This document shows positions 46 through 40,700 of a stretch of 41,012 nucleotides of DNA, in pieces (position 1 is the stretch's first letter; each line of letters begins with the position of its first letter). Where the stretch lies: assembly GCA_029932675.1 (NCBI GenBank), contig JAOZPP010000021.1, positions 1-41,012 on the forward strand, written 5' to 3'. The position numbers were made by a program, and so were the translations under genes. Under the pieces are notes generated by a model. The model made no database searches. It saw only the letters and a list, made by a program, of their open reading frames with translations, and was not told the origin of the DNA. Source of the stretch: a bacterium. Its GTDB lineage: Bacteria; SM23-81; DAOVCL01.

Positions 46-816
46 ATGTGGGTTATAAATAAAAACTGGAAGAGAAATCCCATATGGAGAGTACATTCGG
101 ACAAAATTTCACAAAAAGTTTATGAATTTTTGCATGACCGAGGACTTGCCGAGGTAGATAAAGAGAGTTGGGATTGGATTCTAATGGAAGAGAAAACGAG
201 TTTACTTTATATGTCTTTACTTGCTAAATATCTGGCAGATGTAAATCCTGATTTTACCGTGCCAGGAACAGATAGAAATGAATACGAAAAGATGATTTAT
301 AGAGCTTCTTCACATCACAATAGCTTTGTTTCCCTTGACACAAAATTTATGAATGTTTTACCAATACCTCGTCAAGATATTCCTATTAGCAATATTCTAA
401 GGTTTAAGAGAAAGAGAAGGGATGAACTTTTACACTTTAGAGAAGTAATAGATAACGTCTATCGCGATATTTCAACCGCTGAAGATCAGAATGAAATAAA
501 ACAAATTGTTATAAGTCATAAAGAACGGATTGAAAGAGAAATTAAAGAGCTTAAAAGGATGATGAAAGAAGAGAATATCAAAATCGTATTTGGCTCTCTC
601 AAATCATTGTTAGATATTAAATCTCCTACATTCCTTACAGCCTTAGGAACTTCTATCGCGCAAATACCAATTCAAGTTCAAATTCCTATTTTGGGAATAA
701 CTGCTGCAATTCAGATCGGTTGTTATTTAGTAGATAAAAGAAATCTACAAAGAGCTAGACTAAGGAAATCTCCATTTGCTTATTTGTATCATGCAGAAAC
801 GGAAAGGGTGATATAA
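46..816 (+). CDS. DUF6236-like protein, N-terminus probably lost or frameshifted
   Basis: This is a 256-residue soluble protein rich in charged residues. It has a helical central region (about residues 120-175, many K/E/R) and a hydrophobic glycine/alanine stretch near residues 200-230 that could be one or two membrane-like helices. The pattern 'YMSLLAKYLA...' followed by a 'LPIPRQDIPISNILRFKRKRRDELLHFRE' type region, which I cite only by its ends (residues about 106-133), resembles the DUF6236 family of phage/defence-associated proteins; this is recollection, not a search. Family members normally have about 60-80 further residues upstream. A different frame just before the start (positions 2-58) reads as plausible protein before stopping, so a frameshift or truncation at the 5' end is likely. 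It is the first cassette gene in the window, followed by attC at 832-919. Confidence 0.5.
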   Translation: MWVINKNWKRNPIWRVHSDKISQKVYEFLHDRGLAEVDKESWDWILMEEKTSLLYMSLLAKYLADVNPDFTVPGTDRNEYEKMIYRASSHHNSFVSLDTKFMNVLPIPRQDIPISNILRFKRKRRDELLHFREVIDNVYRDISTAEDQNEIKQIVISHKERIEREIKELKRMMKEENIKIVFGSLKSLLDIKSPTFLTALGTSIAQIPIQVQIPILGITAAIQIGCYLVDKRNLQRARLRKSPFAYLYHAETERVI

Positions 817-831
817 AAATGGCAACGGCAG

Positions 832-919
832 ATAAAACAGCGGACATACGGCTACGCTTTGCTCCAACCCAATTGGCTCACTTTGTTCGCCAACTTCGTA
901 TGTCTGCAAACCGTTATAC
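832..919 (+). other. attC site 1 (degenerate)
   Basis: The left arm ATAAAAC-AGCGGACATACG (832-850) pairs with the right arm CGTATGTCTGC...GTTATAC (897-919). The inner stem CGGACATACG / CGTATGTCTG is 9 of 10 paired. Both outer heptamers deviate from consensus: GTTATAC has T at an R position and ATAAAAC is poor. The inner stem is nearly the same sequence as that of the site at 4539-4629, which supports common descent. Confidence 0.75.
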
Positions 920-961
920 GCCATATTACTTTAAAAAGAATAATCAAGTAAGGAGGCACAT

Positions 962-2068: not shown

Positions 2069-2346
2069 ATGAAATGGTTTAAAGACATCCACAATCGGCA
2101 AATTCGATTAACAGATGAAAGGCAAGAGCACATTGAAACGGACCATCCAGAAATGTTCCGGGTATAATTGTCAGATCAAAAACAGACCCTGATGTTGAGC
2201 TATTTTATCGATATTACGACACCACGCCTGTTACTGAGAAGTATTTATGTGTTGTAGTTAAAGTATTAGCTGAGGAAGTGTTTATTATAACTGCATATTT
2301 CACAGATACGGTAAAGAAAGGAGAGACGTTATGGAAAGGGAAATAA
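2069..2346 (+). pseudogene. Broken nuclease-like (PBECR/RelE-like) gene, putative partner of DUF2283
   Basis: The reading frame from ATG 2069 gives 32 residues (starting MKWFKDIHNRQIRLTDERQ) and hits a stop at 2165-2167. A second frame from about 2161 to the stop at 2344-2346 continues as IIVRSKTDPDVELFYRYY... and ends overlapping the DUF2283 start. Together they resemble a family of about 100-residue proteins that sits upstream of DUF2283 genes and is often labelled a phage Barnase-EndoU-ColicinE5/RelE-like nuclease. I recognise this from memory. About ten residues seem missing at the junction, so a small deletion plus frameshift is the likely lesion. If the pair is a toxin-antitoxin module, the toxin half is dead here. 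Confidence 0.6.
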
Positions 2347-2543
2347 AAATTTGGTATGATAAAGAAGGGGATTATCTTGAGGTTCTTTTTGAGCGGAAAA
2401 AAGGATACTTCAGGGAAACAGAAAACGATGCGGTGATGGAAAAGGTAGATGAGGAGGGAAATATCATTGGTTTTTCCGTTCTAAAAGTGAGTGCATTGAA
2501 GGGGAAGCCCCTTTCAATAGCTCTCAAGAACCACGTCGCCTAA
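2331..2543 (+). CDS. DUF2283 domain protein, putative antitoxin
   Basis: This 70-residue protein has the typical DUF2283 layout: an N-terminal 'IWYDKEGDYLEVLF' strand pair, a central '...VMEKVDEEGNIIGFSVL' segment, and a short C-terminal helix. Full family length is about 60-75 residues, so it looks intact. The start ATG at 2331 lies inside the end of the upstream broken gene (overlap of 16 bp) and has an AAAGGAGAG ribosome binding site, indicating co-expression. Its stop codon TAA lies inside the attC heptamer GCCTAAC at 2538-2544. A partly deleted duplicate of this gene's 3' end is present at 6471-6574. The antitoxin role is inferred from the neighbour only. Confidence 0.8.
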   Translation: MEREIKIWYDKEGDYLEVLFERKKGYFRETENDAVMEKVDEEGNIIGFSVLKVSALKGKPLSIALKNHVA

Positions 2544-2629
2544 CAGAGCATATCTGGCTCCGTTATGTTCTGCCAAATTCCCCTTCGGTATTTTACTTAA
2601 CGGGACTCAGGCTTCGCTCGAAATTAGGC
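2538..2629 (+). other. attC site 3 (R' core mutated)
   Basis: R'' is a perfect GCCTAAC (2538-2544), which supplies the stop codon of DUF2283. The right end reads ATTAGGC (2623-2629), so the G of the GTT cleavage triplet has changed to A. Inner pairing is weak compared with the other sites, although the left arm (GCATATCTGGCTCCG) clearly belongs to the same stem family as sites 2 and 6. Probably recombination-defective. Confidence 0.7.
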
Positions 2630-2650
2630 GAAATGCTGAGAGGAAAATAA

Positions 2651-5145: not shown

Positions 5146-5154
5146 AAAAACTTC

Positions 5155-5238
5155 GCCTAACAAGCGGGTATCTGGCTTCGGCATTCCACCCAAGTCCAGC
5201 CTGACAGCTGAATTTCAGATACGCTGGGAACGATAGGC
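5155..5238 (+). other. attC site 6
   Basis: R'' is a perfect GCCTAAC (5155-5161) and R' is GATAGGC (5232-5238). In the inner stem, GCGGGTATCTG (5164-5174) pairs with CAGATACGC (5216-5224) with two bulged G residues. The stem family matches site 2. Confidence 0.88.
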
Positions 5239-5332
5239 AAAATGTCGCTGCTACGCCACGAAGCCGAGGTGTGACCGGACTTAGGAGCTTATATAGGCCG
5301 CCGGCTCATAGGGGAGCGAACATGGAAGGCAG

Positions 5333-5842: not shown

Positions 5843-6043
5843 GTGAGAGACTATAAGGAAATGAAAATTTCTACGGGCAAGAATAAGATAATTACCAGGC
5901 GAAAACTATTTGAAAGTAAAGCAGACTTCCATAAGGAGCAAGCACGCTTACCCTTTGGGGAAAAGATAAAGATACTTGTTAGGCTACAAAAGATGGCAAG
6001 TGCAATTAAAAAAGGAAAAACAATCTGGAAGGTTGAAGAATGA
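5843..6043 (+). CDS. Small basic protein, partner of the nucleotidyltransferase
   Basis: This is a 66-residue, lysine/arginine-rich protein starting at GTG 5843, directly behind the nucleotidyltransferase gene, with an AAAGGAGAG ribosome binding site ending in that gene's stop. It reads '...EQARLPFGEKIKILVRLQKMASAIKKGKTIWKVEE'. I recognise this pattern only as a recurrent small companion of nucleotidyltransferase-fold genes, not as a named family. It overlaps the following broken gene by 4 bp (ATGA at 6040-6043). A module role (antitoxin or regulator) is inference from the tight coupling. Confidence 0.55.
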   Translation: MRDYKEMKISTGKNKIITRRKLFESKADFHKEQARLPFGEKIKILVRLQKMASAIKKGKTIWKVEE

Positions 6044-6290
6044 ACATAGAAAAGTATCTTGTTCTGAACCAATATCTGTTTTCCCTTTTTGGAGTGGATG
6101 ACTTCAGGGATTTGCAAGAGAAACTGAAAGATGCACCAGTTGGAACAAACAGCGATGGGAGAACTTATTTTTGAATGTCCTGGGGTCAGCGGCTTTCGCA
6201 TCGGGGGCATAATTTCACATGGATTTTTCCAGCACTATCTTTGACCTTAGGCTTTACAAATATGAAGGCTCTTCTGAAAGAAAAGAATGA
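6040..6290 (+). pseudogene. Unrecognised gene remnant
   Basis: An ATG at 6040 overlaps the stop of the preceding 66-aa gene (ATGA). It opens 44 residues (MNIEKYLVLNQYLFSLFGVDD...NSDGRTYF), then stops at 6172-6174. Protein-like sequence resumes in another frame around 6220-6287 (MDFSSTIFDLRLYKYEGSSE). This looks like the start of a much longer protein that has lost most of its length and its frame. I cannot name the family. The arrangement suggests that the nucleotidyltransferase module once had a third, larger gene. Confidence 0.45.
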
Positions 6291-6317
6291 AATGCCTAAA
6301 GAACCTTTGCCAACTTC

Positions 6318-6350
6318 GCCTATCTGGCGGGTAAGTGGCTCCGCTTCGCA
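6318..6350 (+). other. Possible attC left half-site
   Basis: CTTCGCCTATC followed by TGGCGGGTAAGTGGCTCCG resembles the left arms of attC sites 2, 3 and 6 (CTTCGCCTAAC...GGTATCTGGCTTCGG), but the heptamer has T for A and no matching right arm follows. The 120 bp to 6470 hold no gene that I can support. Confidence 0.35.
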
Positions 6351-6470
6351 TTGTAGAGTAACTTATTAGAGAACAGGGAATTAGTTCTTTCTACTCCTCA
6401 AGGATGTAGTGTAACCTAATTTTTAACCCATTGCTATTTCAGAAGTTATAACCATAGGTGTCAAACTTGG

Positions 6471-6574
6471 GTTGTAGTTAAAGTATTAGCTGAGGAAGTG
6501 TTTATCATATCTAAAAGTGAGTGCATTGAAGGGGAAGCCGCTTTCAATAGCTCTCAAGAATCACGTCGCCTAAC
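6471..6574 (+). pseudogene. Internally deleted duplicate of the nuclease-like/DUF2283 cassette end
   Basis: Positions 6471-6505 are identical to 2251-2285 (inside the broken nuclease-like gene). Positions 6511-6574 match 2481-2544 (the 3' end of DUF2283 with the attC heptamer) with two mismatches. The 195 bp between these blocks are replaced by 5 bp. This is a second, decayed copy of the same cassette, not a functional gene. Confidence 0.9.
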
Positions 6575-6577
6575 AGC
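6568..6577 (+). other. attC remnant (R'' only)
   Basis: GCCTAAC at 6568-6574 followed by AGC is the start of an attC site. Three bases later (6581) the ATG of the next gene begins. The hairpin and R' are gone, so the cassette boundary was erased by deletion or atypical joining. Confidence 0.75.
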
Positions 6578-6580
6578 AAA

Positions 6581-7153
6581 ATGTGGGAATATGTAATCTG
6601 TGTAGTCATTTGGGTTGTTTTTATCTTCCTGTGGATTATTAAATCAATTCGAGAACGTAAGATTTTCGCAATTTACGCAGAGTGTGGCATAGCAATCTGT
6701 TTAACATTATTAGTTTTAGGGTTGTTTGGTTGGTTCTATATCCCATCAGATATTTTGGTATTGCGAATTTTAGGAGTTATTGGAAACATTATCTACTGGT
6801 CAGGAGCACCTCTTGCTGTTATTTCGCTTATTACTCTTAGATGTAGGGGAAAACCTAAGGATTTGGTTGAGAATACCACTCTTTTAATTGAAAGTGGAAT
6901 ATTTAGAGTAATTCGTCATCCTCTGTATGTAGGACTTGCTTTTTGGAGTATTGGACTCATACTATTAATTCAATCAATTCCTTCAACAATATTAGGAATG
7001 GTAGCCCTCTTTTGTTTCTGGATGGCATCCAAAAAGGAAGATGAGTTTAACATCAAGAAATTTGGAGATAGTTATAAGGAATATATGAAGAACGTTCCCA
7101 TGTGGAATTTTCTTAAAGGATTAAGGAATTTAAAGAAATTACTGGTAGGTTAG
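6581..7153 (+). CDS. Isoprenylcysteine carboxyl methyltransferase-like membrane protein
   Basis: This 190-residue integral membrane protein has hydrophobic segments at about residues 4-20, 33-52, 58-86 and 116-147. The motif RHPLYVG at residues 112-118, followed near residue 152 by the acidic 'KKEDEFNIKKFGDSYKEYM' tail, is the hallmark of the ICMT/phospholipid methyltransferase family, which uses SAM at the membrane. In bacteria these enzymes methylate lipids or unidentified small substrates. The ATG follows only AACAGCAAA because the upstream attC is truncated, so no ribosome binding site is evident and expression may be poor. It is followed 7 bp later by an attC site. Confidence 0.83.
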   Translation: MWEYVICVVIWVVFIFLWIIKSIRERKIFAIYAECGIAICLTLLVLGLFGWFYIPSDILVLRILGVIGNIIYWSGAPLAVISLITLRCRGKPKDLVENTTLLIESGIFRVIRHPLYVGLAFWSIGLILLIQSIPSTILGMVALFCFWMASKKEDEFNIKKFGDSYKEYMKNVPMWNFLKGLRNLKKLLVG

Positions 7154-7160
7154 TAACTTC

Positions 7161-7324
7161 ACTTAACAGCGTGTTTGCGGTTTCGCTTTGCTCCACCAAA
7201 ATTACGTACCAACACACCTTGCGCTTGGCAATGCCTTATTTCCTTTATCATAAAAGTGGTTATGCCTCCAAAAACGACATCGACAAAACGGCACGCAACT
7301 TCGCAAACACGTAAAACGATAGGC
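7161..7324 (+). other. attC site 7 (long)
   Basis: R'' is ACTTAAC (7161-7167), which fits RYYYAAC, and R' is GATAGGC (7318-7324). The inner stem CGTGTTTGCG (7170-7179) is exactly complementary to CGCAAACACG (7302-7311). At 164 bp this is longer than the other sites, with a large unstructured loop. Confidence 0.82.
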
Positions 7325-7532: not shown

Positions 7533-7556
7533 ATATAGAATGCTTAGTGCTACATC

Positions 7557-7603
7557 GCCTAACAGCGGATAATGGGCGAACTTCGCTTATCCGCCTGTTA
7601 TCG
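7557..7603 (+). other. attC site 8 (short, degenerate, last of array)
   Basis: R'' is a perfect GCCTAAC (7557-7563). The inner stem GCGGATAA (7565-7572) pairs with TTATCCGC (7587-7594), and the right heptamer is GTTATCG (7597-7603). At 47 bp it is shorter than classical attC sites and probably has a loop deletion. No further site was seen to the right. Confidence 0.75.
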
Positions 7604-7747
7604 GGAGTTGAAGTAAGAATTATCAGTAGATCGCAAAAGTTGAGATAACCTCATTATGTAGGATCAAAGAAAAGACTATGAACCCGGATTTTCACAAATT
7701 CACAGCACCTCTCAAATCGCTGAGGCCTCTTGCTGGACTCCGAAAGG

Positions 7748-7814
7748 GCGGACAGACATAAATGTCTGTCCCTACGAAACAAATACACAAATCATTGGCC
7801 TTGAAAAATTTATG
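7748..7814 (+). repeat. 67-bp dispersed repeat with palindrome, copy 1
   Basis: This segment is the exact reverse complement of 32121-32187. It contains a 22-bp near-perfect palindrome (7750-7771: GGACAGACAT, AA, ATGTCTGTCC) followed by a conserved AT-rich 43-bp tail. A GGACTCCG element precedes it here and a related one sits beside the other copy. It resembles a REP-like intergenic element. The gap 7604-8110 otherwise holds only a gene remnant. Confidence 0.85.
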
Positions 7815-37768: not shown

Positions 37769-40700
37769 TTACTTGAGGAGGATCATCCTCCTGGTTTGCA
37801 CAAAATCTCCTGCTCGAATCCGGTATATGTATATCCCACTGGCCAACTCCCTGCCGGCATTGTCCCTTCCATCCCACCTCACCGAGTAGTAGCCAGGAGT
37901 TTGTGGCTCATCCACCAGCGTCCTCACCACTTGCCCCAAGATATTGTAAATCCTTAGGCTAACCGCCCATCGCTTTTGACGATCTACGGGTAACGAGTAA
38001 CGAATCACAGTAGTAGAGTTGAAGGGGTTGGGATAGTTCTGGCCCAGGGAGAAGTGGTCGGGTAAAAATGGCTGGATAGTTGTTTCTATCCCTACAGGGG
38101 GCTGTGAGAGCCAAGGTTCATAGTCCACCGGCCCATAGAACCAAGATGGATCTGGCGGTGAGCTGCCCCACCAGTTGTTCTCCGCCTTTATGGTTTCACT
38201 CACCCCCTCACAATATACCGCATATTGGGGAGAACAGAGGCCAAGGGTGATGCTGTTGTAACCAGTCCCCGGGATGAGGGAATCACCCAACAGAGGATAA
38301 CTTTCGTAACAGGCTACACCAATATCTCTGTAATCGGAGATATCGTTGTTAGAGACCGTTGGTTTAGACCCTGCATATAGGGCTATCCCTACAAGGTTTC
38401 TGTCCAAAATCTGATCCTGGTAGTCTGTCCCCTTGATTACGGTTGTAGAATCAAGGCTTACTCCTACTATGCCATAATAACCACCAGTTATTTGGTTGCC
38501 CACTATCTGGGCTGAGGCATTCTCCATATATATCCCAGTAGTTGCTGTGGTATCTCCTTCGCTGGGTATGTCACACTCAAGGACAGGCATAGCAATGGTA
38601 TTGCCGCTGATGGTCACCTGCCTTTCCGGGGAATCTCCCACCACCTTGATGGCACAATCCCGATTGGAATAACAAGAGAAATCGTTTCCGATGATATATG
38701 GAGAACAGTTCTCGGTGTAGATATCGTAAACATCGTTGGCAGAGAAAGTATTGCCAGCGATATAGAGATCATCGGTGGCACAACCTCTTATACCATAAAC
38801 CAGATCGTCCTTGATGGTGCAGGAGGTAATATGCCCCTCTTGGGCTGAGTCGAAGCTTATCCCACAATATCCGTCCTTGATAGTGGCGTTCTCAATTGTG
38901 GCAAAGCCTCCACTTTTCACCCTTATCCCATACCAGCTCCCTGGCCCGGCATCCGAGGAGAAGTATATCCGGTAAGGATCACCCACGGCATTAAGGCTCC
39001 CCTCCACGATTAGCTCACAGAGGTTTGGATCCGCACCAGAGTCCAGATTGTCCTCCCCCGCGGTGAACTCGATTTGTGCTCCTGGCTGGATGGTGAGCGT
39101 AATGCCTGAAGGGACGGTGACATCTCCGCAGACAAAGACGTTCTTCGGCCAGGTCTGGCTTTCAACAAGCTCCCCTGAGATGACTTTGGCCTGATAAGGT
39201 ATGTAGTTGGGGGCAGTAACCGTAACCTCCAAAGCTCCTGGAGAAGAGAAGGAGGGATAGAAGATAGTCCGACCGTTGATATCTGCATATTTCCGGTCAT
39301 AATATCTTTCGCTTTCTTTCCATAAACAGACCAACGCACCAGGAATTCCTGTTTCCACAGTGAAGCGATTCGGTCCCAACTGATAAGAATGAGGGTGAGA
39401 AACGATCATACTCTGTGGTTGTGTAATCCACACAGGCATACTCGGGTCCCCTAACAAACTTAGTGATTGTAGGCAATAAATATCAATCATATAGAAAACG
39501 CCTTCCTCTAAATCATGTAAGGGATACGAGTTCTTGGCCTTTTCTAAGGCCCAACCAACTGTCTTTGAAGGATCCTGAAAGAGACTGGAAAAGAACAGTT
39601 TATCGAGCAGACAAGAGAAATCTAAGTGACCCCTCATACCGGCTCCGATCCCACTGTTTCCAACATAAGCAACACCACCACCATGAGGATTGGTAAGCCA
39701 ATGTTTACCAAAACAGACTGTCAAACTTGGGTCAATGTAAAAATACATACCGCTGGGGGCAGTATTATCACATTTACACCAAATGGCTGTATCCATGGCA
39801 GCGCTCAAACAAGAAAATGAAACGAACAATCCGTATTTCAATCCATTGCTTAGAGTATCCAGGTCCATAACATCGAGGGACTGATGAGCATTATGCTCAG
39901 GATCAATAGAGATAGAACCCCAGTATCCGTGCCCACCGTGATTGATCAGAAAGTAACCATCCTTCAGCTCGTTCATGGCCTGAGCGTGGTCAATCCGCAA
40001 ATGCTCAAATGGTCCGTCACAGAGGTCGTATGTATCGTCGTAAAGCCTGAAACAACTGGGCTCTCCAGGAAGATCCACAACCACGCTATCCTTGAGGAAA
40101 CCTGCCTCTATGTCGCAACGTCCGAACAGGTAGGCACCCATAAGGAGGAATTGATCGTTTGTGTAGTCAGGAGGAGGGTTTTGCTGATAGGTCAAAACCT
40201 TGTTAACAAAAACCTCTGCTTCCTTTTTGTCTGAGACTGAGGAACGACCTACAGATAAATCTGCATAATAATCAATGAAAAAAGCTTCAGGTAGGGGCCA
40301 ACCATTTATGCTATCAACAGCACCACACCAGTCGCTATAATACCCGTTGCCGTCCATATCCCAAGTCCCATCAAGCGCTGCATAATAATGATCACTCTTC
40401 ATGGTTGGAACACTTTTACCATAAAGATACCAGTGACAGCCAATTGCACTCCTCCTAGCCGGAACATTAGCCGGGTTTCCTCCAATAAGGATATATTCAG
40501 TTCCAAAACTTGCCTGGTCTTTAATAAAGTTCCTGATCTTCTGGGGATTGTCCAAACCTGGCCAATATTGATAGATAGAGTCCAGATCAACAATGGCTGT
40601 CCTCAGACCCCGTCTGGTGTTCCAGCTAACCAGAGGCTGGAATGTGGTGGCCAGCGAATCGGGTGTGATGATAACACAGGCCCAAACAGCATTAGCAGGA

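What the first reader, a model, noticed from the sequence alone, without database searches (positions are those of the whole stretch)
6471..6580. Decayed duplicate cassette fused directly to the next gene
6471-6505 equals 2251-2285 and 6511-6574 equals 2481-2544 with two mismatches; 195 bp between are replaced by 5 bp. The copy keeps GCCTAAC-AGC from its attC but loses the rest, and the next gene's ATG is three bases further on (6581). This records cassette duplication followed by deletion and loss of the recombination site, locking two cassettes together. It shows how cassette arrays can fossilise.
Basis: seen in the sequence. Interest (0 to 1): 0.6.

Follow-up and report, generated by a model that had tools for sequence, protein, structure and literature searches.

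The report
IS-truncated cassette remnant fused to neighbour
A gene cassette in a bacterial cassette array has been cut short on its left by the leftover end of a transposable element, has lost its middle, and has lost nearly all of its own recombination site, so its stub now sits directly against the next gene; this is ordinary genome decay of a kind already described.

Summary
In detail: 6471-6505 equals 2251-2285, and 6511-6574 equals 2481-2544 with two mismatches. Two corrections. The "5 bp insert" is most simply a clean deletion of 190 bp plus one substitution. The left edge is not a cassette feature: 6347-6473 is the last ~127 bp of an IS1634-family insertion sequence present elsewhere in this genome, so real cassette homology starts at 6474 (=2254). 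That element's remnant also abuts half of the preceding cassette's attC (6312-6346). The stub therefore lies between two destroyed attC sites; its own is reduced to GCCTAACAGC and no longer folds. The next gene (6581-7153, PEMT/ICMT-like methyltransferase) is intact from its natural start but has lost the ribosome-binding leader its neighbours have. The three differences between the copies are all synonymous (P about 0.01-0.03), which mildly favours two diverged homologous cassettes over a recent duplication. The other copy (2069-2543) is also broken, by a frameshift. Fused cassettes made by partial attC loss are a described class (PMC4670013), one of them with attC cut to 6 bp. No intermediate state was found in relatives. 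This is a new member of a known kind, well explained, of low to moderate interest.

The parts
2069..2349 (+). Reference cassette, gene 1: small DUF4258/PBECR2-like gene, itself broken by an internal deletion with frameshift after HPEM (TAA at 2165-2167; frame resumes at 2170)
   Evidence: translations; intact homologues of about 100 aa in other genomes lie directly upstream of DUF2283; weak PBECR2/DUF4258 matches of those homologues
2331..2543 (+). Reference cassette, gene 2: DUF2283 protein, 70 aa, intact
   Evidence: Pfam PF10049 E=4.2e-8
2535..2631 (+). Intact attC of the reference cassette
   Evidence: attC model 76 bits (this site was one of the six the model was built from); DNA fold z = -3.0
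5152..5240 (+). Last recognisable attC upstream of the remnant
   Evidence: 73.9 bits (also a model-building sequence)
6312..6346 (+). 5' half of a decayed attC (R'' GCCTATC) belonging to the preceding cassette; 3' half missing
   Evidence: 81% identity with 5149-5180 (family D6); no attC-like fold, z = -0.6
6347..6473 (+). 3' terminal ~127 bp of an IS1634-family element: end of the transposase gene (IVE stop), 3' non-coding part and terminal repeat ...TGTCAAACTTGGGTT
   Evidence: 87% over 92 bp with contig C70 and 96% over the last 50 bp with the 1491-bp IS on C39; IS1634 match on pieces of the C39 transposase; same terminus at contig starts C10, C13, C21
6474..6509 (+). Remnant of gene 1 (VVKVLAEEVFII), = 2254-2289 with one synonymous change
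6510..6573 (+). Remnant of gene 2 (C-terminal LKVSALKGKPLSIALKNHVA and stop), = 2480-2543 with two synonymous changes; 190 bp deleted at the 6509/6510 junction
6568..6577 (+). All that is left of the stub's attC: GCCTAACAGC (R'' box plus 3 bases)
   Evidence: sequence; no fold, -0.7 kcal/mol
6581..7153 (+). Fused next gene: 190-aa membrane methyltransferase (PEMT/ICMT type), full length from its natural ATG but without the Shine-Dalgarno leader of other cassettes
   Evidence: PF04191 E=1.3e-8, PF04140 E=2.7e-6; homologues start at the same Met; leader comparison
7161..7324 (+). Probable long attC (164 bp) behind the methyltransferase, closing the composite cassette
   Evidence: complementary arms found by script; 5' half scores 22 bits with the attC model; fold of the whole not significant

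Best explanation
6474-6577 is the stub of a second DUF4258/PBECR2-like + DUF2283 cassette in a degrading cassette array. An IS1634-family element came to lie in its first gene. A deletion reaching from inside that element to the middle of the preceding attC removed most of the element and the cassette's left part. A further 190-bp deletion removed most of both genes. A last deletion removed the cassette's own attC (all but GCCTAACAGC) together with the leader of the next cassette, leaving the intact methyltransferase gene directly behind the stub. Shown by sequence: each junction and the identity of each piece. Inferred: the order of events, the single-step nature of each deletion, and that the methyltransferase gene was once a separate cassette. 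In effect, everything from 5241 to about 7324 could now move only as one unit, if it moves at all.
For: Repeat identities. IS terminus at 6473, shared with a 1491-bp IS1634-family element on C39 and with several contig ends. Transposase tail joined to an attC half at about 6346. All codon differences synonymous. attC of the stub lost its fold while six neighbours score 72-95 bits (those six also built the model). The next gene starts at the same Met as homologues in KSB1 genomes. Other cassettes have 19-92 bp leaders, several with AGGAGG-type sites, this one has none.
Against: No relative with the uninterrupted or intermediate arrangement was found. No reads are available to exclude misassembly, though the longest exact word shared with another IS copy examined is 37 bp and the two cassette copies differ by substitutions. 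The source sequence upstream of the methyltransferase gene before fusion is unknown, and its nearest homologues showed no attC beside them on the gene's strand in the crude scan.
Confidence: 0.8

Rival explanations
1. Recent duplication of the 2069-2631 cassette inside this array, followed by decay. (This concerns only where the second copy came from; it is compatible with the rest of the best explanation.)
For: Very high identity (97 of 100 bases over the cassette homology) and the same array; no other copy in the genome and no close relative elsewhere (best 71% at DNA level).
Against: All three differences are synonymous (P 0.014-0.027 if random), hinting at divergence while both were functional. 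The two copies carry different lesions. Neither point is decisive with three changes.
Confidence: 0.4
2. Assembly artefact: two repeat-bearing stretches were joined wrongly at the insertion-sequence end or at the cassette repeat.
For: Many contigs of this draft genome end at this element and the contig itself starts inside the array; no reads could be inspected.
Against: The remnant differs from other copies by substitutions; longest exact shared words are 37, 17, 16, 15 and 15 bp with the five IS copies compared and, by the mismatch positions, below 40 bp with the other cassette copy, too short for the usual assembly k-mers.
Confidence: 0.06
3. Integrase-made fusion: the methyltransferase gene was inserted at or next to the R'' box by off-target integron recombination rather than placed there by deletion.
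For: The junction lies within 3-6 bases of the R'' box.
Against: From established knowledge, the integrase cuts in the R' box (G^TTRRRY), not behind R''; no R' remains on either side; the leader and Shine-Dalgarno are missing, which deletion explains and insertion does not.
Confidence: 0.06

Closest known systems
Fused gene cassettes of class 1 integrons, e.g. blaGES-1/aacA4 (PMC4670013)
   Same: Partial loss of the first cassette's attC; there it is cut to 6 bp of the 1L core site, here to GCCTAACAGC; the next reading frame follows directly; the paper reported that such a pair moves as one cassette and is co-transcribed.
   Different: There both coding regions are complete; here the first is a double-deletion stub bounded by an IS end, in what looks like a chromosomal array of an uncultured lineage without a detected integrase.
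IS1634-family insertion sequences and their decayed remnants
   Same: Terminal repeat AACCCAAGTTTGACA/TGTCAAACTTGGGTT, transposase pieces matching the family model, several copies in this genome.
   Different: Only the last ~127 bp remain here, so no target-site duplication can be read.
CALIN (cluster of attC sites lacking an integron integrase)
   Same: Six strong attC sites in a row, more on C31, C112, C100 and C50, no integrase above cut-off in the assembly.
   Different: The contig begins inside the array, so the integrase may simply lie in the unassembled part.

Membership tests
Fused cassette by attC loss | First cassette's attC partly or wholly missing | tested here: met
   GCCTAACAGC only; no fold
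Fused cassette by attC loss | Two cassette genes joined, second gene intact | tested here: met
   190-aa ORF starting at the same Met as homologues
Fused cassette by attC loss | First coding region complete (stated for the published fused cassettes, PMC4670013; so this is a degenerate member, not a functional fused pair) | tested here: not met
   stub of both genes only
Fused cassette by attC loss | Excised as one circle / co-transcribed | not testable with these tools
   needs inverse PCR and RT-PCR
Integron cassette array (attC cluster) | Series of attC sites with R''/R' boxes, inner stem, each behind an ORF in one direction | tested here: met
   six sites, 72-95 bits, used to build the model; four of these six fold with z at or below -2.8, the sites at 827 and 5153 do not
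Complete integron | intI gene and attI next to the array | tested here: inconclusive
   no match over cut-off in the assembled genome, but the contig begins inside the array
IS1634 family element (6347-6473) | Transposase of the family next to matching terminal repeats | tested here: met
   met on the C39 relative, though its pieces stay below the curated cut-off for a whole transposase; the window itself keeps only the end
IS1634 family element (6347-6473) | Target-site duplication | not testable with these tools
   left end and left flank are deleted

The most novel reading that the evidence does not exclude
The deletions are not neutral debris. By removing the attC hairpin and leader, they put the methyltransferase start 7 nt behind the stop of a 27-codon stub frame, so the gene is now translated by termination-reinitiation from a dead cassette, turning a mobile cassette gene into a fixed, rewired one.
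Probability: 0.12. Interest if true: 0.4.

Novelty: new member of a known kind. Interest (0 to 1): 0.22.

Why it matters
It is a small, legible record of how a cassette array loses mobility: two recombination sites lost around one stub, one of them at an insertion-sequence remnant.

Tried and rejected
Looked for intact or intermediate forms in relatives by DNA (60 genomes) and protein (290 genomes), in 84,980 genomes and on plasmids: only distant homologues (best DNA 71-73%). The hypothesis of extra copies elsewhere in the genome was rejected. A "5-bp insertion" was rejected in favour of a clean deletion plus one substitution. An outward promoter in the IS end was scanned for and not found. 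No full integron integrase was found; the candidates read are Xer-like or other tyrosine recombinases and short fragments. The organism could not be named: the named collection leaves out the window's own genome.

Full report
Observation. In the whole genome (3.03 Mb, 116 contigs; the window is contig C83 from its first base) these are the only other copies of that cassette.

What the reference copy is. 2069-2631 is a two-gene cassette. The first gene is a small protein whose intact homologues elsewhere are about 100 aa, sit directly upstream of DUF2283, and resemble PBECR2/DUF4258 weakly. The second gene encodes DUF2283 (PF10049). The cassette ends in an intact attC at 2535-2631. Its first gene is broken: after HPEM the frame is lost, and it resumes at 2170. 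So both copies are damaged, in different places.

Junction inside the copy. Left homology runs through 6509 (=2289) with one change, and right homology starts at 6510 (=2480). The simplest reading is one 190-bp deletion. The three substitutions (ATT/ATC, CCC/CCG, AAC/AAT) are all synonymous in 33 codons. The chance of 3/3 is 0.014-0.027 under simple models, or about 0.06-0.09 if the change at the junction is left out (my estimate from the same fractions). This favours a diverged homologous cassette over a fresh duplicate, weakly.

Left edge. Search of the own genome with the flank showed that 6380-6471 matches C70 (87%), and that the last 50 bp (6424-6473) match C39 at 96%. The motif TGTCAAACTTGGGTT, or a one-base variant of it, stands at about base 40 of seven contig starts, the signature of a multicopy element that broke the assembly. 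On C39 the same terminus closes a 1491-bp element with the inverted motif at its other end, and pieces of its broken transposase match NCBIfam NF033559 (IS1634 family; best piece E=5e-13). C70 shows the transposase tail (...GTATTGTAGAGTAACTTAT) that window 6347-6366 repeats. Hence 6347-6473 is the 3' end of such an element, and the copy's left boundary is the IS end at 6473. To its left, 6312-6346 is the 5' half of an attC (81% like 5149-5180), with no 3' half and no fold. The exact base of the attC/IS junction (6341-6347) cannot be fixed. Whether the IS inserted into the stub's first gene, or reached it by an adjacent deletion, cannot be told, because the left flank is gone.

Right edge. Only GCCTAACAGC of the attC is left, then AAA and ATG (6581). 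The fold is gone (-0.7 kcal/mol; six canonical neighbours -11.7 to -27 kcal/mol). The next gene is an intact 190-aa PEMT/ICMT-like methyltransferase. Homologues in two KSB1 genomes begin at the corresponding Met, so the protein is complete, but the 19-92 bp leaders seen in the other cassettes, several with clear Shine-Dalgarno-like sequences, are missing. The stub's DUF2283 tail leaves a 27-codon open frame whose stop lies 7 nt before the ATG, so coupled translation is possible but untested. A short shared GC at both breakpoints could have mediated the deletion of the hairpin, but the lost sequence is unknown, so this stays inference.

Array context. A model built from six attC sites of the window finds those six again at 72-95 bits, as it must, plus a weak long one at 7158 and further sites on contigs C31, C112, C100 and C50. 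No integron integrase over the curated cut-off was found. With the contig starting inside the array, absence is not proven.

Relatives. No orthologous array was found in the one genome of the same genus, in two of the same phylum, or in a wider sample, so intermediate states could not be observed.

Comparison with the literature. Fused cassettes produced by partial or total attC loss are a described class; in blaGES-1/aacA4 the site is cut to 6 bp of the 1L core, and the pair moves and is transcribed as one (PMC4670013). Paralogous cassettes are frequent in large Vibrio arrays (PMC1382264). The present case belongs to that class by its attC loss, differs in having a decayed first gene, and adds an IS remnant at the other side.

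Verdict. Real, well explained, and ordinary in kind.

Noticed in passing
2150-2175: The supposedly intact reference cassette has a frameshifting deletion in its first (PBECR2/DUF4258-like) gene compared with homologues; both copies of this gene pair are broken in that gene.
   Followed up: partly
39716-39733: An 18-mer GACTGTCAAACTTGGGTC identical to the left-end terminus of the IS1634-family element (C4, C43) lies within what reads as coding sequence on the minus strand, with no other element sequence around it; hard to ascribe to chance.
   Followed up: no
7740-7775: A palindromic GGACAGACATAAATGTCTGTCCCTAC repeat resembles one inserted in the IS remnant on contig C70 (L017): possible small dispersed repeat family.
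   Followed up: no
6043-6311: Between the DUF2204 cassette and the attC half lies a truncated open frame (MNIEKYLVLNQYLFSLFGVDDF...) and other debris, so the cassette before the stub is also decaying.
   Followed up: no
L111 (C22) 529-924, minus strand: Fragment of a tyrosine recombinase resembling the C-terminal part of integron or Xer integrases, broken near a contig end; possibly a dead integrase remnant.
   Followed up: partly
7553-7610: Very short attC-like hairpin (about 50 bp) at the downstream end of the array, folding well (z = -4.1).
   Followed up: no
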